Source: Caldilineaceae bacterium (GTDB lineage Bacteria > Chloroflexota > Anaerolineae > Caldilineales > Caldilineaceae). From it: DNA of 64,000 nucleotides. The notes below the pieces were generated by a model that saw nothing but the letters and a program-made list of their open reading frames with translations, ran no database searches and was not told the DNA's origin. Below are positions 51,943 through 64,000 of the stretch, in pieces (the stretch's first letter is position 1; each line of letters starts with the position of its first letter). The stretch spans positions 62,001 to 126,000 of the forward strand of contig JAJDTL010000021.1 of the NCBI GenBank assembly GCA_022827195.1, given 5' to 3'. The translations under genes and the position numbers were made by a program.

Positions 51943-52162
51943 ATGGACAAGGTTTAGTCGCGAAAACTGAAATTCGAGAGGGCTCGAAAGAAGGCGTATT
52001 CTGATTCGCCGACTGCATTTGCTCCGTCGGCGCCGGAACGTGACAGGCATACGACCCGGGCTGAAGACCGGCTCGGAATCGCACGCGGCACACTCAGTAA
52101 CCGGCGGAATCGTTCCTGCCATCGCAGGCTCTGCCGGACTGCACCCGAAAGAGAAAACACCC

Positions 52163-55100
52163 ATGATTCGCCGTTCTCACCTGTTGATATTGCTTATACT
52201 ACCGGCGTTGGCGACCCTGAGCTGCGCCCGAAATGGATCAGGCGGCGGCCTGAGCGCGGTTAGCGATGGTCCATCCGAGATAGATGTCGAGATTGAACCG
52301 TCCGAATATGAAGTCGACGACTATTTCGAGGGCGAGTGGCCGCCTCTCGAAGACTCGCTCTCCCCGCCCTTTGTCCTCAGCGAGGGCGGGCCCGATTGGG
52401 ACGCCGGCGAAGCGCGTCCGCCCCTCGCGCAGACGAAACCGCTCACGCCGGAACAGGTCCGGACTCTGCTGAGCCGCCTGCCGCCCGTTCAAGAGCAGGA
52501 GGGCGACGTCGAGCAGGTGCGCCTGCCCCACCAGGTCCTCCCGTCCCCCCGGCCCGGCGTCGAAGTGGAGCTGCCCTTCCCGCCGCCGCAGGCCGCTTCC
52601 CTGCCCGATGCCCATGCCGACGCGCCTCTGGCCGTTTTGCGCTATTCGCCCGAGGGAGACGTGCCGCTGGCCCCCCAGCTGAGTATCACCTTCAACCAGC
52701 CGATGGTCCCTCTAACCAGCCACCGCGAACTGGCCCGTGAGGAGGTACCGGTCAGACTGTCCCCCGAACCGCCGGGCCGCTGGCGCTGGGTGGGCGCGCA
52801 GACGCTCTTTTTCGAGGCCGGCGCCGCAGGCCCCGCTCGCATGCCCATGGCGACCGAGTACACGGTCCAAATCCCAGCGGGCACACAATCTGCCGGCGGC
52901 CGGAAACTGGCCGAGCCCGTCAGCTGGACCTTCCGCACGCCGCCGCCCACGCTGCAGTTGGCGCATCCCACCAGCCGTTCTCTCGGTGTGGCGCCTGTCT
53001 TCTATGCATCTTTCGACCAGAGAATCGACCCTGCGGCCGTCCTCGAGCACGCGCAGGTGACTGCCCGCGGCGTCAGCTACGCGCTGCGCCTGGCGACCGA
53101 AGCTGAGATCGCTGCCGACACGCGGGTTCAACGCCTGGCTGGGGCAGCCCCTCCCGACCGCTGGCTGGCTTTCGTCGCCGTGGAGCCTCTCCCGCGCGAC
53201 GCGACCGTCACAGTCACCTTCGGCACGGGCACGCCCTCCCTCGAGGGCCCGCTCGTCAGCGCGCGCCCTCAAAGCTACAGCTTCCATACCCCCGGCCCGT
53301 TCGCGCTGCGGCAACATCGGTGCGGCTGGTCAGACGGCAACCGCTGTCAGCCCGGCGAACCCTGGCTTCTGCGCTTTAACAATCCCGTCGACTTCGTAAG
53401 ATTCGACCCTGCCCTCATCTCCGTCGAACCGGAACCTGCCGCCGGCTCCTACGAGGTCTACGACCACGAAATCTGGATTCAGGCAATCACGCGCGGCAAC
53501 ACGACCTACACTGTCACCTTGGACGCCGAACTGACCGACCGCTTCGACCAGCCGCTGGCTGAGGAGCTGCAGGTGCGGTTCGAGGTCGGCCCGGCCGAGG
53601 CATTCCTGACCGCCAAGGCCGGCGGCCCGATTACAACCCTGGACCCGTATGCCAGGCCCGTTTTCCCGATCTACACGCTCAACCTCAACGCGGTCAAGGT
53701 GCGCGCCTTTCGCGTTGCCGCGGAGCAGTACGTCGACTATCTCCTGTGGCGCCATTACCACCGCAACGATGACCGGCAGGATCCACCAGGCGAGCTTGTC
53801 ATGCAGCGCACGCTGCAGCTGGACTCCCAGGCCGACGCAGTGCTGGAGACGAACATCGATCTTGCCGGCGCCCTCGACGGCGATACCGGCCACCTCATCC
53901 TCTACGTCGAGCCGCAGAGCGGTTTGCTCGCTTCTCTCTTCAACCAACGGCTACGGGAAACGCGCGTCGTCAGCTGGGTTCAGGTGACCGGAATCGGCCT
54001 GGACGCCTTCGTCGATGATGATGAGATCTTCGTCTGGACAAACCGACTGGCCGACGGCGCACCGCTGCCGGGCGTGCGCGTGACCCTCTGGCCCCAGGAG
54101 CTGCACGGCACGACCGACGAGACCGGTTCTGCCCTGTTGTCGCTCCCGCAAGATAGCGCGCAGCTGCTCATCGCCCGCGCCGGCGATGACACGGCGTTTC
54201 TGCCCGAAAACCGTTACGAATTCTACCTCACCGAGAGCGGCTGGAACGGCTGGCGGCTGCGTCCCGCCGCCGCCGAAGCCCGCTACTACGTCTTCGACGA
54301 CCGCAAGATCTACCGTCCGGGCGAGACCGTCAGCGTCATGGGCTGGATGCGCCTGATCGAACGCAGCCCGGAGGGCGACGTGAGCCTGATCCGCCAAGGC
54401 GGCCCGGACCGGCTCAGCTATGTTGTGCGTGACGAGTCGAACAATCGCATCGACGCCGGCTCCGTACCCCTCAACGCGCTCGGGGGTTTTCATTTCCAGT
54501 TCGACCTGCCCGAAAACGTCAACCTGGGATACGCCTGGATCGAGTTGGAACCGGCCGCCGGCTTCCCCGCCGCGGACGAAGCCCGCCACTACCACGGGTT
54601 CCAGATCCAGGAGTTTCGCCGCCCTGAGTTTGAAGTCAGCGCCCGCGTCAGTGAAGGCCCCCACGTCGCCGGCGGGCGCGCGCTCGCCACCGTCAGCGCC
54701 GGCTACTTTGCCGGCGGCCCGCTGCCGAACGCCGAAGTGGCCTGGGAGGTCGAGGCAACGTCAGGCGCCTACGAGCCGCCCAACTGGTCCGGCTTCATCT
54801 TCGGCAAATGGTTGCCGTGGTGGGGCCATGAAGACGAGTCCGGTTACCTCGGCCGCGCCGCCTTCACCGCGCGCACCGGCGCCGCCGGCGAGCACAGCCT
54901 GCGCATCGACTTTCTGACCGGCGCAAACGCCGGGAACGGCTCCGATCTGCCCGGTCGGGAGAACGTGCGACCCTTTCCGGTCCACGTCAACGCCCGCGCG
55001 ACCGTGTTCGACGTGAACCGGCAGGCGTGGAGCAGCGGCGCCGGCCTGCTCCTGCATCCGGCCGACCTCTACGTCGGCCTGCGCACCGAGCGCTACTTCG

Positions 55101-58100
55101 TCGAGCAGGGCGAGCCGCTCTCGGTTGAAGTCGTCGTCACCGACATCGACGGCAATGCGGTCGCGGGCCATGGCGCGGTCGTGCGCGCCGCGCGGCTGGG
55201 CTGGGTCTACCGTGAAGGCGGATGGCGGGAGATCGAAAAGGAGGCGCAGGAGTGCACGGTAGAAACAACCGCCGCGGCTGCGCCGGACGACAGTGAACAC
55301 AATTTTGCCGCCTGCGGTTTTGAAACGCCGCTTGGCGGCGAGTACCGCATCACCGCCACCGTTACTGACGAAGCCGGTCGTCGCAACCGCACCGAGTTGA
55401 TTCGCTGGGTGAGCGGCGGTCAGCGGCCGCCGAGCGGCAACGTGGAGCGGGAAGAGCTGCAGCTCATCCCCGACGGCGAGGCGTACGCGCCCGGGGAGAC
55501 CGCCCAAATCCTGGTGCAGGCGCCCTTCTTCCCCGCCGAAGGCCTTGTCACCCTGCGCCGCGACGGTCTCGTTTCCAGCCAGCGCTTCACGATGGACGGC
55601 CCGACCCACACCTTGCACGTGCCGATCGAGGAGCAGTACGCGCCCAACATTCACGTGCAGGTCAACCTGGTCGGGTCAGCCGTGCGCGTCGATGGCGCGG
55701 GCAATGAGCTTCCTGCCGCGCCCCGCCGCCCCGCCTACGCGCGCGGCCGGCTCAACCTGTCGATTCCGCCCCTGAGCCGCACACTGCAGGTCGACGCGAC
55801 CCCGCGTGCGCTGAAACTGGAGCCCGGCGCCGAGACAACAATCGACGTATCGGTGCGGGATGCAAGCGGCGCACCGGTGGCCGGCGCCGAATTCGCCGTC
55901 GTGGTCGTGGATGAGGCGATCCTGGCCCTGACCGGCTATCAGCTGCTCGACCCCGTAAGCGTCTTTTACAGTGATCGCGGCCGCGGGGTCGGCGACCACC
56001 ACAGTCGCGCCGACCTGGTGCTGGCGAGTCCGCAGGCGCTGCCGGGGGCAACACCCGCGCCAACCGGTACGCCGCAACCGCAACAACCGCGTCCCGAAAT
56101 GCTAAGGCAGACGTTTGCGCTCGAGGCGTCGGCCCCGGCCATGGCGGAGATGGCAATGGGTGATGACATGGCCGAAGAGTCGATGGACGCCGACGGCGGC
56201 GGCGAGGCGATACGCGTCAGGCTGAACTACGACCCGCTCGCCCTCTTCGCGCCCGAGGTTCGTACCGACGCCGACGGGCAGGCCAGCGTTTCCGTCACTT
56301 TGCCCGACAACCTCACCCGCTATCGCGTCATGGTGGTGGCCGTGGCCGGCGGCAAGTTCTTCGGCAGCGCCGCGTCCAACCTCACCGCGCGGCTGCCGCT
56401 GATGGTACGCCCTTCCGCGCCCCGTTTCCTCAACTTCGGCGACAGCTTCGAACTGCCGGTCGTGCTGCAAAACCAGACCGACGCGGCGATGGTGACACAC
56501 GTGGTCGTCCGCGCGACCAACGCCGATTTGGTGGCGGAAAGCGGCGGGAGTGAAGCGGTCGGCTACGCGCTGGAGGTGCCCGCCAACGACCGTGTCGAGG
56601 TACGCTTTCCAACACAGACCGCCGGCGCAGGCACGGCCCGTTTCCAGTTTGCCGCGGTCGCCGCCAATCAGCCTGCGATCGCCGACGCGGCCGAGATCGA
56701 CCTGCCGGTCTTCACACCCGCAACCACCGAGGCCTTTGCCGTCTACGGTGAGATCGACGCCAACGGCGCGGTCCTGCAGACTTTGCGGCCCCCGACTGAT
56801 GCAGTCCCGAGCTACGGCGGCCTGGAAGTAACGATCTCCTCAACCGCGCTGCAGGCGCTGACCGACGCCTTCATCTACCTAGTGCGCTACCCCTACGAAT
56901 GCTCCGAGCAGATCGCCTCCCGCATCCTCGGCGTGGCCGCGCTGCGCGACGTATTGACGGCGTTCGACGCGGAGGGGCTGCCGACGCCCGCCGAGATCGA
57001 GATAATGATGGACAGCGATCTGCAGACGCTGCAGGCCTTACAGGACTACGGCGGCGGCTTTCCCATCTGGCGGCGCGGCGGCGAAGTCTGGCCCTATCAC
57101 AGCGTCCACGTCGCCCATGCCCTGGCCCGCGCCCGGTTGAAGGGCTACGCGGTTCCCGAAGACATGCTGAGCCGCTCGCTTGACTATCTGCGCACCATCG
57201 AGGACCACTTCCCCTCCTGGTACGGGGCCGGCGTCCGTCGCGGTCTTTCCTCCTACGCCCTCTATGTGCGCAAACTGCTGGACGACGATGATCCATCCAA
57301 GGCAAGAAGGCTGATTAACGAAGCCGGTTTGGAAAACCTCTCGCTCGAAAGCGTCGGCTGGCTTCTCTTCGTGCTCAGCGACGATCCGGCCTCCCACCAG
57401 ACGGTCGCAGAGATGCGGCGCTTCCTCAACAACCGCGTGACGGAGACCGCCGGCGCGGCCACGGTCGCCTCCGGCTACGGCGACGGCGCATACCTTCTGC
57501 TCCATTCCAGCCGCCGCGCCGACGCCGTCCTGTTGGAAGCGCTCGTCGTTGACCAGCCCAACAGCGACCTGATTACAAAGCTGGTGCGCGGGCTGCTGGG
57601 GCACCGCGCCGCAGGCCGCTGGAGCAATACGCAGGAAAACGTCTGGGTGCTCCTAGCGCTGGACCGCTACTTCAACGCCTTCGAGTCACAGACGCCCGAC
57701 TTCGTCGCCCGCATCTGGCTGGGTGAGCGGTACGCGGGCGGCCATGCCTTCGAGGGCCGCTCAACCGAAAACGTCGCTCTCGGCCTCCCGATGCAGTACC
57801 TCCGGACAAGCGCGGATGAAACCGACGGCGACCTTCCCCTGACTCTGCAGAAGGAAGGCCAGGGACGGCTCTACTACCGGTTGGGTCTGCGCTATGCTCC
57901 CCTCGACCTGCGCCTTGACGCCGCCGATCGTGGCTTCACCGTCGAGCGAGTCTACGAGGCTGTCGACGATCCGGCCGACGTGCGCCGCGACGAGGACGGC
58001 AAATGGCACATCCGCGCCGGCGCCCGCGTGCGCGTCAAACTTGTAATGGCGGCCCCCTCGCGCCGTGTTCACGTAGCCCTGGTTGACCCGCTGCCCGCCG

Positions 58101-58399
58101 GATTGGAGATCCTCAATCCCGAACTCGCAGTAACCGGAGACCTGGGGGACGAGCCGAACCGGAACCGAGGACGATGGTGGGGGGGAAGCTGGTATCGGCA
58201 TCAGAACCTGCGCGACGAGCGGGCCGAGGCCTTCACGCCATACCTGTGGGCCGGTGTCTACCAATACAGCTACATGGCCAGGGCCACGACCCCCGGCGTT
58301 TTCGTGGCGCCCCCCGCCAAGGCCGAAGAGATGTACGCGCCGGAGACCTTCGGAAGATCGGGAACGGATTGGGTCGTTGTCGAGGTGAACGAAGAGTAA
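52163..58399 (+). CDS. Bacterial alpha-2-macroglobulin-like lipoprotein
   Basis: A 2078-residue exported protein, the largest in the window, starting at ATG 52163 with a signal peptide ending near Cys21 (ATLSC, an imperfect lipobox). An acidic linker is followed by Ig-like MG domains (LSITFNQPMVP; the A2M_N strand region near VYDDRKIYRPGETVSVMGWM), a Pro/Thr/Met-rich bait-like region at about residues 1290-1360, the A2M domain (YDPLALFAPEVRTDADGQASVSVTLPDNLTRYR) and the thioester domain with YECSEQIASRILG, Cys1580 and Gln1583 being the thioester pair. It should trap attacking proteases in the envelope. The usual partner pbpC (PBP1C) is not adjacent. Confidence 0.9.
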   Translation: MIRRSHLLILLILPALATLSCARNGSGGGLSAVSDGPSEIDVEIEPSEYEVDDYFEGEWPPLEDSLSPPFVLSEGGPDWDAGEARPPLAQTKPLTPEQVRTLLSRLPPVQEQEGDVEQVRLPHQVLPSPRPGVEVELPFPPPQAASLPDAHADAPLAVLRYSPEGDVPLAPQLSITFNQPMVPLTSHRELAREEVPVRLSPEPPGRWRWVGAQTLFFEAGAAGPARMPMATEYTVQIPAGTQSAGGRKLAEPVSWTFRTPPPTLQLAHPTSRSLGVAPVFYASFDQRIDPAAVLEHAQVTARGVSYALRLATEAEIAADTRVQRLAGAAPPDRWLAFVAVEPLPRDATVTVTFGTGTPSLEGPLVSARPQSYSFHTPGPFALRQHRCGWSDGNRCQPGEPWLLRFNNPVDFVRFDPALISVEPEPAAGSYEVYDHEIWIQAITRGNTTYTVTLDAELTDRFDQPLAEELQVRFEVGPAEAFLTAKAGGPITTLDPYARPVFPIYTLNLNAVKVRAFRVAAEQYVDYLLWRHYHRNDDRQDPPGELVMQRTLQLDSQADAVLETNIDLAGALDGDTGHLILYVEPQSGLLASLFNQRLRETRVVSWVQVTGIGLDAFVDDDEIFVWTNRLADGAPLPGVRVTLWPQELHGTTDETGSALLSLPQDSAQLLIARAGDDTAFLPENRYEFYLTESGWNGWRLRPAAAEARYYVFDDRKIYRPGETVSVMGWMRLIERSPEGDVSLIRQGGPDRLSYVVRDESNNRIDAGSVPLNALGGFHFQFDLPENVNLGYAWIELEPAAGFPAADEARHYHGFQIQEFRRPEFEVSARVSEGPHVAGGRALATVSAGYFAGGPLPNAEVAWEVEATSGAYEPPNWSGFIFGKWLPWWGHEDESGYLGRAAFTARTGAAGEHSLRIDFLTGANAGNGSDLPGRENVRPFPVHVNARATVFDVNRQAWSSGAGLLLHPADLYVGLRTERYFVEQGEPLSVEVVVTDIDGNAVAGHGAVVRAARLGWVYREGGWREIEKEAQECTVETTAAAAPDDSEHNFAACGFETPLGGEYRITATVTDEAGRRNRTELIRWVSGGQRPPSGNVEREELQLIPDGEAYAPGETAQILVQAPFFPAEGLVTLRRDGLVSSQRFTMDGPTHTLHVPIEEQYAPNIHVQVNLVGSAVRVDGAGNELPAAPRRPAYARGRLNLSIPPLSRTLQVDATPRALKLEPGAETTIDVSVRDASGAPVAGAEFAVVVVDEAILALTGYQLLDPVSVFYSDRGRGVGDHHSRADLVLASPQALPGATPAPTGTPQPQQPRPEMLRQTFALEASAPAMAEMAMGDDMAEESMDADGGGEAIRVRLNYDPLALFAPEVRTDADGQASVSVTLPDNLTRYRVMVVAVAGGKFFGSAASNLTARLPLMVRPSAPRFLNFGDSFELPVVLQNQTDAAMVTHVVVRATNADLVAESGGSEAVGYALEVPANDRVEVRFPTQTAGAGTARFQFAAVAANQPAIADAAEIDLPVFTPATTEAFAVYGEIDANGAVLQTLRPPTDAVPSYGGLEVTISSTALQALTDAFIYLVRYPYECSEQIASRILGVAALRDVLTAFDAEGLPTPAEIEIMMDSDLQTLQALQDYGGGFPIWRRGGEVWPYHSVHVAHALARARLKGYAVPEDMLSRSLDYLRTIEDHFPSWYGAGVRRGLSSYALYVRKLLDDDDPSKARRLINEAGLENLSLESVGWLLFVLSDDPASHQTVAEMRRFLNNRVTETAGAATVASGYGDGAYLLLHSSRRADAVLLEALVVDQPNSDLITKLVRGLLGHRAAGRWSNTQENVWVLLALDRYFNAFESQTPDFVARIWLGERYAGGHAFEGRSTENVALGLPMQYLRTSADETDGDLPLTLQKEGQGRLYYRLGLRYAPLDLRLDAADRGFTVERVYEAVDDPADVRRDEDGKWHIRAGARVRVKLVMAAPSRRVHVALVDPLPAGLEILNPELAVTGDLGDEPNRNRGRWWGGSWYRHQNLRDERAEAFTPYLWAGVYQYSYMARATTPGVFVAPPAKAEEMYAPETFGRSGTDWVVVEVNEE

Positions 58400-58769
58400 A
58401 GTGTGCGGTCGTGCACAGTGACATAGGACCGGCGCAAGTACGCTATCTCCGGCTTGATCGCGCAATCCGGGTCTGGCCAATCGTCTTGCTGCCTTCACGC
58501 GGTTTCAAGGCAACCCGGACCTTGTGGGTGGCCGTGACTCGCCGCCGTTTGTGAACATCGTACCGCCCCTGAACAGTCTGGGTGGACTACTCCATTGTAC
58601 TCCTTAGCTTGTGGTCCAGTTTTTGGAGCCCACTTCAAAAATCTTCTGGGAGAACTGGGTCGAATGTGTAGCGGTTTGGGTTTATGGGGACAAATATGAG
58701 GCCCACAGTTTAACCTTCAACCAAAGTGAAGACCTTTTGAGCTTCCCAGTAGAACAGAAGAGATAAGAC
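58400..58769. other. Intergenic stretch with an inverted IS-like end
   Basis: About 370 bases. The first part is GC-rich like the macroglobulin gene; the composition drops after about 58580. It holds the inverted IS-like end (58590-58632) and no supportable gene. A GAAGAGATAAG ribosome site precedes the next CDS. Confidence 0.5.
58590..58632 (-). repeat. IS-like end, inverted copy
   Basis: The minus strand reads CCAAAAACTGGACCACAAGC followed by TAAGGAGTACAATGGAG, matching the left parts of the repeats at 60202 and 61361 but in the opposite orientation. The form of the end resembles terminal repeats of IS3-family elements (CCCAAAA-CTGGAC). No transposase gene accompanies it. Confidence 0.6.
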
Positions 58770-60065
58770 ATGGGTTGTCCAATCGCGAAATTAGATTCGT
58801 TGAGAAAACGAACTGTCCTAATCCCATTGCTCACCGCTGCCATCGGTTTTTTTCTAACGGGTTGTGTTCCGGTAACGTCAGAGGCCGGCGAAGACCGGGC
58901 GGTCTTTCCGTGCGATAGGTTGGAAATGTCTCATTGGGAAAAGTTTGATTTTGGGCCTGCTTCTTCGCTCGATGGATTCTTGGGAACAGTTGATCAGCTT
59001 TACGGGGTCGACAGCGATGTTCTCCACTCTGTCAAGAGTCCCGAAGGGCAAGTCACCGAAGTAAACTGGACTGACAGTAATTCTGGATTAGCCGCTCATT
59101 TTTTTGGCGATGGGCGACTGGCGGACATTCAAGTGCTATGGGCCCGAGAGCAGCCTACTTTGGCCCAAGTCATAAGCTGTTTGGGTCCTCCCGTCACCCA
59201 GACAGAAGTCACCATCAGTGATGGAACCGGAGCGGGAATCGTGAGTTTCTGGACTGCCGAAAAGGGACCATGGAGGGATGTTCCGGGTCTTGTCACAATG
59301 CTAATCCTCGAAGGTGTCTCCTGGCTCAATCCAGATATCCCTTCAAGGGCAAGTCAACCTGAATATCGAATGAGAGAGCTCAGGGTCTTCACGATTCCTG
59401 AGCCGCAACGAACAATCGTCAGCTCTGAACGTTCATCGTGCGTTAGGCTATCTGTTTCCCGATGGCAAGAGTTCAAGTTTGGTGTCGATTCTTCGGGCGA
59501 CATCTATGAACATGTAGTCAATCTCTGGGGTGATGATAAGGGGAAGATTGATGTTGCAGGACTAGCAGACAAAGAGTCTCCCCATATGAGATGGAGCGAT
59601 CGAAAAGGGGAGATTCGCTACAGGGCTGATCTCGAGGAAGGAACGCTCAGTAAAATTGATGTCTGGCTTGAGCCGGCGTTTGGACTAGGCCTGGTAATCG
59701 ACTGCCTGGGCTCTCCTGAGCAGTTTTCGGCCTATTACAGCGGGGGACCGGAGTCGGAAGCTGTTGTCCTGGAGCTATGGTATGAGCAAAAGGGATTCGT
59801 TGTGCAGGGCGGTGCTGACGCTTACTATGCCTGGAACAAGCTGCCAGACACAGTAACTCCTGATTTGCGAATGGAGCGACTTCTGGTTCTCCCTCCTGGG
59901 CTTGAAAAGATTGCCTACAGACTTAGTGGTTCGGCTGAAGGGGCGATTCGGACAATATGTACCCTTAAGCCGTGGCCGGGCTCGATTGAGGGGATCGAGA
60001 TCGAGGAGCTGGATGACAGCGAGATCGACGCATGTGAAGAGGCGGCGCCGGATTGGCCGGAGTAG
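58770..60065 (+). CDS. Two-domain lipoprotein, paralog 1 of the island
   Basis: A 431-residue lipoprotein; signal peptide ends FFLTGC. The mature part has two copies of one domain, about residues 48-210 and 222-400. Each copy follows W-x-x-F-x-FG, then a L/V-x-x-LY/LW-G-x-D segment, a W-[TS]-D strand, I-x-V strand, and P-T/L-x-Q-V-I-x-C-L-G-x-P. The protein ends with KPWPGSIEGIEIEEL, shared in closely similar form by the other two paralogs. Codon and base use are AT-richer than upstream genes, suggesting acquisition. I do not recognise the family. Possible immunity lipoprotein of an Rhs toxin (see findings). Confidence 0.75.
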   Translation: MGCPIAKLDSLRKRTVLIPLLTAAIGFFLTGCVPVTSEAGEDRAVFPCDRLEMSHWEKFDFGPASSLDGFLGTVDQLYGVDSDVLHSVKSPEGQVTEVNWTDSNSGLAAHFFGDGRLADIQVLWAREQPTLAQVISCLGPPVTQTEVTISDGTGAGIVSFWTAEKGPWRDVPGLVTMLILEGVSWLNPDIPSRASQPEYRMRELRVFTIPEPQRTIVSSERSSCVRLSVSRWQEFKFGVDSSGDIYEHVVNLWGDDKGKIDVAGLADKESPHMRWSDRKGEIRYRADLEEGTLSKIDVWLEPAFGLGLVIDCLGSPEQFSAYYSGGPESEAVVLELWYEQKGFVVQGGADAYYAWNKLPDTVTPDLRMERLLVLPPGLEKIAYRLSGSAEGAIRTICTLKPWPGSIEGIEIEELDDSEIDACEEAAPDWPE

Positions 60066-60201
60066 GCTGGAAGGCAGGTGCATCCTGGTTGACCCGGCGC
60101 TGGGTCCTCAATGAAGAAAAACTGTCCAGTCGCGCGGACCAGACAGAGCATTAAAGCAATTTCCTGACATTGACCTTTTTTCGAAAGGGACGACTCACGA
60201 G

Positions 60202-60506
60202 CTTGGCCTCAAAAACTGGACTACAAGCTAAGGTGTATGATGGAGCAATTCACCAAGCCTGTGGAGGGGCAGAATGATGGTTTAAGAGTCGGAGGTGATA
60301 AACCGCAGCCTGCAAGCCCCGACTACACAATTGCCATAACCGTTCGTTAGCAGTTGAATCCCCCTTTGCAGCACTCCCGCCTCGCCAGCGCGCGCCCAAC
60401 GGCAGCGTCACAGTCTACCATTAGTACGGCCTGACCTCTTCGGTCAACGGCGGCGGCGAAGGCGACGAAGCGCGGCGCACGCTCAGCTGGCTGCAGCAGG
60501 ACTAAA
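60202..60506 (+). repeat. Direct repeat copy A: IS-like end plus Rhs fragment
   Basis: Matches 61361-61668 over roughly 300 bases, starting CTTGGCCTCAAAAACTGGAC and continuing past ATGGAGCAATTCACC. It has more point changes and stops than copy B. It contains the IS-like end, a degraded leader and the beginning of an Rhs fragment. Confidence 0.7.
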
Positions 60507-60576
60507 GTAGATCCCTTTTGATACCACGACTTATGACATGAGTCGCATCCTGGGGCATCAGTCGTCTCGCCTGTAA
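60385..60576 (+). pseudogene. Rhs/YD-repeat protein remnant 1
   Basis: Reads APNGSVTVYH, stop, YGLTSSVNGGG, then ARRTLSWLQQD and a stop, matching the corresponding part of remnant 2, where the same stretch continues as a long YD-repeat core. A further in-frame-like piece (FDTTTYDMSRILGHQ) ends at 60576, just 50 bases before the paralog-2 start. Only the 5' edge and tail of the Rhs gene survive. Confidence 0.6.
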
Positions 60577-60625
60577 GAACGGAATGTGAAAACTCTAGGT
60601 TTCATTAGGGAAGCACTTTAGCACC

Positions 60626-61360
60626 ATGAGAATCTTCACAAGAAGAGGTGTGCGTGTGGCTATCCCCTTTGCGTTTCTGCTTATCCTTTTCCTTATGTGT
60701 GGTACTTATCTACTGCCTCCTCTTCCCTTCCCTTGCGCCAATTTCACAGAAACCTACTGGTCGGAATTCAACTTCAATGTCGATACTCCGGATGAAGTTG
60801 CCTCTAACGTGTTCCGCTTATGGGGCATAGAAAATAGTAAACTCGATAGATACGAGGATATTTGGGGAAATCTGATAGGACTACGTTGGCTAAGCATTAG
60901 GTTGAACAAACCTTTTGGATTTTATACAGCCTGGTTTCGGGAAGGGGTTCTCCAAAAGATTGATGTTGAGTGGACCCCGTTGCCAATGCCGTCGTTATCG
61001 CAGGCAGTCGAATGCCTCGGCGCTCCTGGATACTACATTGTGTACTATGGAATGGCTCCGGATGGACACAACATCAATCTAGATCTACTTTATACTGAGA
61101 AAGGCCTCGTCGTCCGCTATGTGTCACTTTTCACAACCTTCTTAATGCCCGAGCTACCAGAAGAGTTTCATCCCCGCATGCGAATAGAAGGGTTGGCTGT
61201 AGTTGCCCCAGGTGCGCCCGAACAGATGGTGCCTGCGGTCTATAGCACTGGCAATGTGGGCGGAGGGTATGTTCACAATGCCTGTCTGAGCAAACCTTGG
61301 CCTGGCTCGATAGAGGCAATGGAGATAGTTCCACGTCAGGAATTTATTTCTTGTCATTGA
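60626..61360 (+). CDS. Single-domain exported protein, paralog 2 of the island
   Basis: A 244-residue protein with one N-terminal hydrophobic helix (residues about 9-27, containing LMCG, not a canonical lipobox) and one copy of the island domain: YWSEFNFNVDT, VFRLWGIENSKLD, GVLQKIDVEW, PSLSQAVECLGAPGYY. It ends SKPWPGSIEAMEI, as in paralogs 1 and 3. It corresponds to the second domain of those. AT-rich relative to the rest of the window. Its stop (61358-61360) abuts IS-like copy B, so its last residues may derive from that insertion. Confidence 0.7.
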   Translation: MRIFTRRGVRVAIPFAFLLILFLMCGTYLLPPLPFPCANFTETYWSEFNFNVDTPDEVASNVFRLWGIENSKLDRYEDIWGNLIGLRWLSIRLNKPFGFYTAWFREGVLQKIDVEWTPLPMPSLSQAVECLGAPGYYIVYYGMAPDGHNINLDLLYTEKGLVVRYVSLFTTFLMPELPEEFHPRMRIEGLAVVAPGAPEQMVPAVYSTGNVGGGYVHNACLSKPWPGSIEAMEIVPRQEFISCH

Positions 61361-61668
61361 CCTTGGCCCCAAAAACTGGACCACAAGCTAAAGTGTATAA
61401 TGGAGCAATTCACCGAGCCTGTGGAGGGGCAGAACGATGGTCAAGAAACGGCGGTCACACCGCAGCCGACAAGCCCCGACAACATAATTGTCATAACCGT
61501 TCGTTTGCAGTTGAATCCCCCCTCGCCGCACTCCCGCCCCGTCGCCAGCGCGCCCAACGGCACCACCACCACCAACCACGACAACGGCCTCACCTCCTCG
61601 GTCATCGCCTCCGGCGAGAGCGCCCCCCGCGCCGCATCCTCAGCTGGAAGCAGCAGGACCAGCTGGGA
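61361..61668 (+). repeat. Direct repeat copy B: IS-like end plus Rhs fragment
   Basis: Begins CCTTGGCCCCAAAAACTGGA right after the paralog-2 stop. Downstream, ATGGTCAAGAAACGGCGG (MVKKRR) resembles the basic start of an IS3-type orfA, but the frame is lost within about 12 codons, after which Rhs-like sequence begins. Copy A is at 60202-60506. Confidence 0.65.
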
Positions 61669-62489
61669 CGCACGACCCTCCTGCGCAGCTACGTCCCCGG
61701 CGGCGACCAATGGACGCTCGAGTCGGAGATCTCACTCACTTACGGCGCGGCCGATCATTTGACGCAGACCTACCGCCGCGACGGAGGCCAGGGCCGCTGG
61801 CAGTGTTCCAGCGGCTTCAGCTACGACTCCCTCGGCCGCAGGACCGGCATGTCCGACGCCGATTTGGGCAACTGGAGCTACGCCAACAACACGCTCGGCC
61901 TGCTCATGCGGCAGACCGACGCCCGCGACAAGACCAGCTGCATCTACTACGACAGCCTCGGGCGCATGCGCGGCCGCGTGCAGCGGACGGACGAGAACTG
62001 CGCGTCCGCCGTAACTGACGCCTCCTACGCCTACGATTCGTACGGCCGCGTGAGAGTGTCTCCAGTGACAGCGTATCCCGCAGCTACACCTACGACAGCT
62101 ACAGCCGACTCAGCAACGAGACCGTCACCATCGACAGCCTGACGCTCACGAGCGGCTACAGCTACGACGATCACCACCGGCCGACCGCGGTCACCTATCC
62201 GGGCGGCGAGGTGATAACAACAACCTACGGCAGCCCGGGCGTGGCTGTGGGTCTGAGCAGCTCAATCCATGGTGCCTTGATCGACAAGGTCAGCTACGAC
62301 GAAGCCAGGCGCCTGACCGCTCTGCGCTTCCCAGCGGGCGGCGACCTCTGGCGCACGCAGAGCTACTACCCTTGGGCGGAGCCATGCAACGGCAGCATGT
62401 TGGAGAGCTTAAAGGTAGGCCTTAGTGAGGGCGGCGGCGTGCGACTGAGCCGCGGTTACGCCTACAACCAGTGCGAATTCTCCTTGTAC
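61540..62489 (+). pseudogene. Rhs/YD-repeat protein remnant 2, frameshifted
   Basis: About 950 bases coding for typical YD repeats, split over three frames. Part one reads APNGTTTTNHDNGLTSSV; after a shift near 61620 comes WKQQDQLGRTTLLRSYVPGG, FSYDSLGRRTGM, IYYDSLGRMRGR, YAYDSYGR; after a second shift near 62050 come SRSYTYDSYSRLSNETVTID, SYDDHHRPTAVTYPGGE and VSYDEARRLTALRFPAGG. Several G/Y-D-x-x-G/N-R repeats mark the RHS beta-cocoon. The conserved C-terminal core motif before the toxin (DPxGxxR / YR-YDP) is missing. GC-rich, unlike the flanking lipoproteins. Confidence 0.8.
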
Positions 62490-62740
62490 AATAAGTCAAG
62501 AGTTGGATTGCATCTCTCACAAATGGTTTTCGGACCCCGAAGTCAAAATGACCGACTGGCAGGTCAGGCGAGTTACAGAATACGGGGGGTGGGGTGTTTT
62601 GGGGGAATTGGGCCGAGGCCGTCGCGCTCTGGGCATACCCCGACTACAAGGGCCCGGCGCGATTTGTCCGATCTGGCTACCAACCGTACGGTTATACTGC
62701 CGCCCAACTTGAGGACTTCCGGAAGATTCTGCGGCCATGA
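62490..62740 (+). pseudogene. Rhs-tail / candidate toxin fragment, overlapping paralog 3
   Basis: Two adjoining frames look like one small domain: WFSDPEVKMTDWQVRRVTEY, then, after a one-base shift in a G/T-rich run near 62585-62605, NWAEAVALWAYPDYKGPARF, VRSGYQPYGYTAAQLEDFRK and ILRP. The stop TGA at 62738-62740 overlaps the ATG of paralog 3 (ATGA). This is the position of the variable C-terminal toxin in Rhs genes. I recognise no toxin fold. The shift may be a real mutation or a sequencing error in the homopolymer. Confidence 0.5.
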
Positions 62741-64000
62741 ACCGTGATCTGATCCTAGATGGATTCAAGCGCAGCGCAGGCGGCATCGTCCGTACTGCTG
62801 CGTTGGCTTACTTGGTGGGATTACTTCTCGTCGGCTGCATCCCCATTACGCCTGAGGAGGGGGATACAGCGCCGACCTCTTTCTGCGTCCGCTGGAGCTA
62901 TGAACATTGGCAAAATTTCGACTTTGGGGACGACGCCTCCGTTGACGACCTGCTCGCTACCGTGCGCAAGCTCTATGACGTAGACGACGATAGCATCAGC
63001 ATTGAGAAAGATCCGGAAGGCCAGACCAGGCACGTAAACTGGACGGACAACAACGTTGACTACAGCGCTTCCTTAATAACCGGAGATCGACTCAAGAGCA
63101 TAAACGTTTACTGGCGCAGTCAGCCGCCGACGATGGCCCAGCTAATCGACTGCCTTGGTTCGCCTGAAAGATACTATGAAGCCGCCAATGACGAGGGGGC
63201 TGAAATCAATGAAGAGCAATTCCAGGTAGATCAAGACGTGAGTTACTGGCTGGATGAAGCGCTCATAGATTTGTATCCGGGGTATGTATCACCACTAATT
63301 GTCGAAGGTGTCGCGTCGCCAAAGGTCGAGTCGTCTCTTCAAGCGGGTCAGCCTGACCATCCGATGGAGCGGCTAAAGGTCTTTGTTATGACAGAACAGG
63401 CCTACGAAGCTCCGGGCCCCTCTGCGTGCGCCAGGTTATCGGTTTCCCGCTGGCGCGAGTTCAGATTCGGCGTAGACCTCGTCGGTGATGTTGTCGCCAC
63501 TGTGATCAGACTTTGGGACATAGACCGGGAAAAGATAGAAGGTGGAGAGAGACATACTGAGGTTGAGGGATTCTTCCCTGTATTGTGGTCGAACAATGAC
63601 CAAGAAGAAATCTATCACGCGGCCGATTTTTCGCCCGACGGGAAGCTCGAAGTGGTATCCGGTGTAATGATCCCTGGGCTTGCTTTGGGCCAGATTATCG
63701 ACTGTCTGGGGCCTCCCGATTACTATATCGCGTTCCGCGGCAACCTATTCCTCGCGGCGACTGACCTGCGACTCTATTATATCGAAGAGGGATTCAGAGT
63801 AAGAGGCATCTCTGGTCATAGATGGCCTTGGTTAAAACCGCTGGAAAGGATTTCGCCCGAATACGGGATGAGCGAGTTCGATGTTCACCCACTCAGCTAT
63901 GAGGACATTGTCCGCGGCATCAGTGATGTGGATGGTGACGGCAATCCTGACTCGTGCATCCTTAGGATATGGCCGGGCTCGATTGAAGCGATGGAAATCG
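62737..64000 (+). CDS. Two-domain lipoprotein, paralog 3 of the island (runs off window end)
   Basis: At least 421 residues from ATG 62737. The signal peptide ends LLLVGC (lipobox). Two domain copies: first HWQNFDFGDD, VRKLYDVDDDSI, VNWTDNN, TMAQLIDCLGSP; second ARLSVSRWREFRFGVD, VIRLWDIDREKI, LALGQIIDCLGPPDYY. It closes with RIWPGSIEAMEI at the window edge, so only a short tail is missing. It is closely similar to paralog 1 in layout. Its start overlaps the stop of the Rhs tail frame, implying joint translation. Confidence 0.75.
   Translation, partial: MNRDLILDGFKRSAGGIVRTAALAYLVGLLLVGCIPITPEEGDTAPTSFCVRWSYEHWQNFDFGDDASVDDLLATVRKLYDVDDDSISIEKDPEGQTRHVNWTDNNVDYSASLITGDRLKSINVYWRSQPPTMAQLIDCLGSPERYYEAANDEGAEINEEQFQVDQDVSYWLDEALIDLYPGYVSPLIVEGVASPKVESSLQAGQPDHPMERLKVFVMTEQAYEAPGPSACARLSVSRWREFRFGVDLVGDVVATVIRLWDIDREKIEGGERHTEVEGFFPVLWSNNDQEEIYHAADFSPDGKLEVVSGVMIPGLALGQIIDCLGPPDYYIAFRGNLFLAATDLRLYYIEEGFRVRGISGHRWPWLKPLERISPEYGMSEFDVHPLSYEDIVRGISDVDGDGNPDSCILRIWPGSIEAMEI

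What the first reader, a model, noticed from the sequence alone, without database searches (positions are those of the whole stretch)
58590..64000. Decayed Rhs toxin / lipoprotein immunity array with three paralogous exported proteins
Seen: three paralogs of one unrecognised exported family alternate with two Rhs/YD-repeat remnants; paralogs 2 and 3 each follow an Rhs remnant directly (50 bases and an ATGA overlap). Established: Rhs genes are commonly followed by a cognate immunity gene, and displaced toxin tips with orphan immunity genes accumulate in tandem. Inference: this family is an envelope-anchored immunity lipoprotein for an Rhs toxin delivered at the cell surface, and paralog 1 is an orphan immunity. 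An immunity family anchored as a two-domain lipoprotein would be new to me.
Basis: partly seen in the sequence, partly recalled or inferred. Interest (0 to 1): 0.78.

Follow-up and report, generated by a model that had tools for sequence, protein, structure and literature searches.

The report
Immunity lipoproteins paired with Rhs zinc-peptidase tips
A string of look-alike membrane-anchored proteins in a Chloroflexota (Caldilineaceae) genome are most likely antidotes to a bacterial weapon whose warhead is a zinc peptidase; the weapon genes here are wrecked, but a related genome keeps nearly complete weapon-plus-antidote pairs.

Summary
In detail: three paralogs (a fourth, C37:129929-131185, starts 3.9 kb past the window) sit among Rhs remnants. 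The immunity idea is strengthened and made specific. In a congeneric MAG two Rhs reading frames end in an HExxH...ExxxE zinc-peptidase tip, and a paralog-1 or paralog-4 ortholog starts 3 nt after, or overlapping, the tip's stop codon. A tip profile built from those two pairs finds ten catalytic tip places in the neighbourhoods read; all ten are followed on the same strand by this family, including one before paralog 1 (taken for a stray orphan), one before paralog 3 and two in another Chloroflexota family. Rhs genes with other tips are not followed by it; Ntox44 tips are followed by a second, unrelated lipoprotein family. Tip and immunity identities rise and fall together. The tip profile's five PDB sequence matches are all zinc metalloenzymes, four of them astacins. 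Most full-length copies carry a lipobox; paralog 2 does not. The family has no Pfam, NCBIfam or PDB sequence match. Precedents exist: Tpe-Tpi/VgrG2b-PA0261 and Imm65. So this is a new immunity family of a known kind. Toxicity, neutralisation and membrane anchoring are inferred, not shown.

The parts
58552..58638 (-). IS3-type left-end remnant, inverted relative to the copies at 60199 and 61359; it borders the toxin-tip remnant before paralog 1
   Evidence: inverted repeat I1/I2, 79-80% complementary; 40 genomic copies; the copy near the contig end reads MVKRRRRHTAASKFRIALEALEGSKTNG
58638..58763 (+). remnant of a zinc-peptidase Rhs tip: last 42 codons including WENWVE; stop codon follows, then GAC, then the ATG of paralog 1
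   Evidence: 69% identical to the last 42 aa of the tip in G012:C22, E 5e-13; independent tip profile E 1.2e-12
58770..60065 (+). paralog 1: two-domain putative immunity lipoprotein (lipobox LTGC); domains about 58890-59438 and 59418-60038
   Evidence: 74% identical ortholog directly behind an Rhs tip in G012
60199..60384 (+). IS3-type left-end remnant
   Evidence: repeats D1 and D2; genome copies
60377..60502 (+). Rhs core fragment (42 aa), broken by stops
   Evidence: 67% identity to the Rhs of G012:C22, E 4e-11
60626..61360 (+). paralog 2: one-domain member with an N-terminal hydrophobic stretch but no canonical lipobox; domain about 60713-61357; no tip remnant found upstream
61359..61541 (+). 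IS3-type left-end remnant
61532..62468 (+). Rhs core remnant in three frameshifted pieces (61532-61618, 61636-62055, 62085-62468)
   Evidence: 70-83% identity to the Rhs of G012:C22, E 2e-124; RHS_repeat
62473..62737 (+). frameshifted remnant of a zinc-peptidase tip (WGNWAEAVALWAY), stop overlapping the ATG of paralog 3 (ATGA)
   Evidence: tip profile E 2.4e-7 and 8.5e-6; junction sequence
62737..64000 (+). paralog 3: two-domain putative immunity lipoprotein (lipobox LVGC), continues past the window end to L005:6536

Best explanation
These are immunity proteins of a polymorphic Rhs toxin system. A Rhs protein carries a swappable C-terminal toxin tip; in an intact relative of the same Rhs family (G002, with an Ntox44 tip) the N-terminus reads as a Sec signal peptide followed by SpvB and RHS repeats. 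The tip cognate to the family described here is a zinc peptidase (HExxH plus ExxxE). The gene directly 3' of that tip encodes a protein of one or two copies of a ~200-aa alpha/beta domain, usually with a lipoprotein signal, which would sit on the outer face of the membrane, bind incoming or sibling peptidase tips and block them. In this genome IS3-type insertions and recombination in the Rhs core broke the toxins but left the 3' end of each tip fused to its immunity gene, giving an array of retained immunity genes. Shown: gene order, motif conservation, homology, reading frames, lipobox patterns. Inferred: toxicity, binding, neutralisation, membrane anchoring, IS-driven decay.
For: Two uninterrupted tip-immunity junctions in the congeneric MAG G012. 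A tip profile from those two only finds ten catalytic tip places (own genome 3, G012 5, G338 2), each followed on the same strand within about 300 nt by the family (neighbourhoods were chosen around family members). The genome-wide tip searches (46 genomes of the family, 400 of the phylum) add tip homologs only in long proteins that are not Rhs-array members where read. G012 Rhs ends with other tips are not followed by the family within the 1.5 kb read. Tip and immunity identities covary: 69/74% and 55/73% within types, 34-41/35-39% between. Invariant H, E, H and two E in the tips. Tip profile matches in PDB sequences: four astacins (three at E 5e-4 to 7e-4) and one zinc metallohydrolase lipoprotein. 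Lipobox in most full-length copies. Immunity frames open while tips decay; dN/dS 0.39-0.50 between copies. Intact Rhs with SpvB, RHS and Ntox44 by Pfam; its N-terminal signal peptide read by eye.
Against: No complete, uninterrupted Rhs gene with this tip was found: the best one (G012:C22) has one in-frame TAG. About half of the family copies have no detectable tip upstream, and orthologs in G010, G011 and G015 sit at one syntenic site away from Rhs. The fold of the tip could not be predicted (pLDDT 39.5). No functional data. Paralog 2 and the fusion in L061 lack a canonical lipobox next to the domain.
Confidence: 0.82

Rival explanations
1. Generic Rhs-associated lipoproteins: a surface anchor, chaperone or release factor for the Rhs protein that is independent of the tip.
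For: They are lipoproteins next to genes for exported Rhs proteins.
Against: The family follows only zinc-peptidase tips; Ntox44 tips on the same Rhs scaffold are followed by a different lipoprotein family in the cases read. It diverges together with the tip, not with the conserved Rhs core.
Confidence: 0.08
2. Retained orphan copies have been recruited to another envelope role, so that in this genome the proteins no longer act as immunity.
For: All toxins at this locus are broken while the four immunity frames are open; a single-copy ortholog is kept at one syntenic site in three species without Rhs nearby; one member is fused to LVIVD repeats.
Against: Orphan or poly-immunity genes kept against toxins of non-kin strains are expected without a new role (PMC3482391). 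No evidence of a distinct function was found.
Confidence: 0.2
3. The similarity of order is a by-product of duplication of one ancestral tip-immunity segment by IS elements and says little about function.
For: IS3-type remnants flank the segments; copies in one genome are related.
Against: The order is kept in G338, another family of the class, where immunity identity is only 16-22% and tip identity 26-32% to the others, too old for one recent IS-borne duplication.
Confidence: 0.06

Closest known systems
Tpe-Tpi effector-immunity family (VgrG2b C-terminal domain with PA0261; Tpe1-Tpi1)
   Same: HExxH metallopeptidase toxin domain at the C-terminus of a large delivered protein, small gene directly downstream, envelope-localised immunity; some PA0261 homologs are predicted lipoproteins (PMC6899460).
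   Different: Delivered by the type VI secretion system in proteobacteria, not by an Rhs/SpvB protein in Chloroflexota; neither tip nor immunity showed sequence similarity to any solved structure of that pair.
Tox-MPTase1-5 and Tox-HopH1 metallopeptidase tips of Rhs polymorphic toxins
   Same: HExxH zincin tips on RHS-repeat proteins, some with TcdB/TcaC-type (signal peptide plus SpvB) export (PMC3482391).
   Different: That survey lists no immunity protein for them; the tip here has an additional invariant ExxxE motif and matched no Pfam or NCBIfam model above its cut-off.
Imm65
   Same: Immunity protein of an Rhs-type polymorphic toxin with a signal peptide and lipobox (PMC3482391).
   Different: Paired with Tox-JAB-1 in Bacteroidetes. 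No direct comparison was made; the Pfam scan of our family returned nothing.
Tox-ALF metallopeptidase (Pfam ATLF, PF07737)
   Same: Weak, sub-threshold match of the G338 tip over the HExxH region, E 0.015.
   Different: Below the family cut-off (15.5 versus 27.4 bits); the other tips give no match; its listed immunity is Imm-SuFu, which was not seen here.

Membership tests
Rhs polymorphic toxin-immunity system | RHS-repeat protein with conserved core and variable C-terminal tip | tested here: met
   G012 and G002 Rhs proteins share core and SpvB but end in zinc-peptidase or Ntox44 tips. In the window only remnants.
Rhs polymorphic toxin-immunity system | cognate small gene directly downstream of the tip | tested here: met
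   Ten of ten catalytic tip places; other tips not followed by it.
Rhs polymorphic toxin-immunity system | tip is toxic and the downstream protein neutralises it | not testable with these tools
   Needs expression experiments.
zinc metallopeptidase (zincin) tip | HExxH plus a further acidic zinc ligand | tested here: met
   Invariant H160 E161 H164 and E213, E217 in five divergent tips; the role of the glutamates is inferred; PDB sequence matches are zinc metalloenzymes.
zinc metallopeptidase (zincin) tip | zincin fold | tested here: inconclusive
   Model with pLDDT 39.5 is unusable.
Tpe-Tpi (VgrG2b-PA0261) | sequence homology to VgrG2b C-terminal domain or PA0261 | tested here: inconclusive
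   No match of tip or immunity profile to PDB sequences of that family at E up to 10; distant homology not excluded.
Tpe-Tpi (VgrG2b-PA0261) | delivery by a type VI secretion system | not tested
   Not searched for.
ATLF (PF07737) | match above the Pfam gathering score | tested here: not met
   G338 tip 15.5 bits against 27.4; the two G012 tips give no match.
lipoprotein | signal peptide with lipobox | tested here: met
   Paralogs 1, 3, 4 and most full-length homologs; paralog 2 not met. Pattern only; no prediction program or experiment.
BLIP or YjgB (DUF4309) fold | clear structural match | tested here: inconclusive
   Best Z 8.0 to 4ygt with rmsd 4.4 over 124 aa, BLIP entries about Z 3; no Foldseek match at E <= 0.001.

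The most novel reading that the evidence does not exclude
The family is an unrecognised group of surface-anchored peptidase inhibitors and would supply an immunity partner for Rhs zinc-peptidase tips, which had none listed in the 2012 survey. Together with the unrelated lipoprotein family behind the Ntox44 tips it suggests that this secreted Rhs system attacks from the outside, so that all its antidotes are anchored outside the membrane.
Probability: 0.4. Interest if true: 0.62.

Novelty: new member of a known kind. Interest (0 to 1): 0.48.

Why it matters
It gives a concrete, testable toxin-immunity pair for zinc-peptidase Rhs tips and a first look at interbacterial weapons of uncultivated Caldilineaceae. 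The rule that both immunity families seen with this Rhs scaffold are mostly lipoproteins predicts where the toxins act. The broken array also shows how immunity genes, with the last codons of the tip attached, outlive the toxin genes.

Tried and rejected
Pfam and NCBIfam scans of the paralogs and tips: nothing useful. PDB sequence search with the immunity profile: nothing. Foldseek against PDB and viral models: no match at E <= 0.001. Tip structure: four rows, pLDDT 39.5, unusable, so no fold search was made with it. Plasmid records: no match to paralog 1 or to the tip. Considered and rejected: that the ~115-nt repeat is a functional Rhs leader or cassette-joining site (it is an IS3-type left end, 40 copies genome-wide). 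Considered and rejected: that all HExxH/ExxxE proteins of the genus belong to the system (those read are long proteins, the one scanned having LRR and fn3 domains, without the immunity family).

Full report
Observation. Between them lie Rhs core pieces with frameshifts and stops and three copies of a ~115-nt repeat, one inverted. That repeat has 40 matches in the genome; its copy near the contig end reads into an IS3-type orfA start, so it is IS debris. The IS3 assignment rests on reading the translation, not on a database match.

Which Rhs, which tip. In a MAG of the same genus (G012, CATOTS01, uncultured Caldilineaceae) the ortholog of paralog 1 (74% identity) starts 3 nt after the stop codon of a Rhs frame, and the ortholog of paralog 4 (73%) overlaps the stop of another. 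Both frames end in a ~250-aa tip with HE[LF]AHK and, about 50 residues on, WENWAEGVAVWVY. Pfam finds RHS repeats and, below or near its cut-off, SpvB in the first of these proteins. The G012:C22 Rhs has one in-frame TAG, so no fully intact gene with this tip was found. An intact 2005-aa Rhs of the same scaffold in G002 has SpvB, RHS repeats and an Ntox44 tip; its N-terminus reads as a Sec signal peptide (by eye).

The tip is a zinc peptidase. Across five divergent tips H, E and H of HExxH and two glutamates of ExxxE are invariant. A profile of them searched against all PDB sequences returned five entries up to E 10: four astacins (three at 5e-4 to 7e-4) and a zinc metallohydrolase lipoprotein. 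The G338 tip has a sub-threshold match to the ATLF family. Structure prediction of the tip failed.

Association. A tip profile built only from the two G012 pairs was run over all neighbourhoods read. It found ten places with the catalytic part: three in the own genome (before paralogs 1, 3 and 4), five in G012 and two in G338, a different family of the class. All ten are followed on the same strand within about 300 nt by a member of the immunity family. These neighbourhoods were mostly picked because they hold the family, so the count is biased that way; the genome-wide searches with the tip profile are not, and in those the further matches in the family are in long proteins of another kind (one of those read carries LRR and fn3 domains) with no immunity gene seen behind them. 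In the other direction, Rhs ends in G012 with other tips are not followed by the family; the three Ntox44 tips identified by Pfam (two G012, one G002) have the second lipoprotein family, imB, further downstream. About half of the family copies show no tip upstream, as expected for orphan immunity genes, but that is an interpretation.

Co-divergence. Tip and immunity identities move together: 69% and 74% for paralog 1 versus G012:C22, 55% and 73% for paralog 4 versus C41, 34-41% and 35-39% between the two types, 26-32% and 16-22% to G338. The paralog-1 tip value rests on 42 residues.

The immunity family. One domain of ~200 aa, single or in tandem, motifs W-x2-F-x-FG, DCLGPPEYY and C...PWPGSIEAxE. 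No Pfam, NCBIfam or PDB sequence match. AlphaFold gives an alpha/beta domain with mean pLDDT 84.7; the best structural neighbour is YjgB (Z 8.0), which the tool's own note treats as borderline, and several BLIP entries near Z 3. Canonical lipoboxes precede the domain in most full-length copies, not in paralog 2; the regular expression missed the one in the first G338 copy (TAGC), which was seen by eye. The family is found in 9 of 17 genomes of the genus, 10 of 46 of the family and one further genome of 400 sampled in the phylum. dN/dS between copies is 0.39-0.50, mild purifying selection, while the tips of this locus are broken.

Mechanism. Most likely the Rhs protein is exported, its tip acts outside the cytoplasm of rivals, and the lipoprotein on the outer face of the membrane binds and blocks the peptidase. 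Export, site of action, binding and protection are inferred. Compared with what is known: it works like Tpe-Tpi (PMC6899460) but shows no detectable homology to it; Rhs metallopeptidase tips are known without a listed immunity partner, and lipobox immunity (Imm65) and poly-immunity arrays are known (PMC3482391). Hence a new member of a known kind.

Noticed in passing
L005:7431-7976 and L005:8041-8718 (C37, past the window end): A second lipoprotein-like family (imB, about 180-240 aa, no Pfam match) follows Rhs ends; behind Ntox44 tips in G012 and G002. Likely immunity for Ntox44.
   Followed up: partly
window 52019-58399: A 2126-aa bacterial alpha-2-macroglobulin (A2M, bMG10, MG2) lies directly upstream; an internal ATG start gives a lipoprotein signal (LSC). 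It may protect against peptidases too.
   Followed up: no
L145, L147, L148, L149, L150, L154-L157, L160: Long proteins in the same genus carry the same HExxH...EYWAE peptidase domain, mostly at the C-terminus; the one scanned (L145) has LRR and fn3 domains. No immunity family behind them.
   Followed up: partly
L061 (G012:C35), frame of 602 aa: An immunity-family domain fused behind an LVIVD-repeat region in one lipoprotein-like protein.
   Followed up: partly
L066, L067, L068 (G015, G011, G010): Single-copy orthologs at one conserved site downstream of an oxidoreductase-like gene, no Rhs nearby: orphan immunity kept in three species.
   Followed up: partly
window 58552-58638, 60199-60384, 61359-61541 and 40 places in the genome: IS3-type left-end remnants spread through the genome, clustered on contigs C10, C22, C29, C31 and C37.
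   Followed up: partly
L005:12627-13508: An apparently intact transposase frame (looks like the IS982 family, by eye) ends the contig.
   Followed up: no
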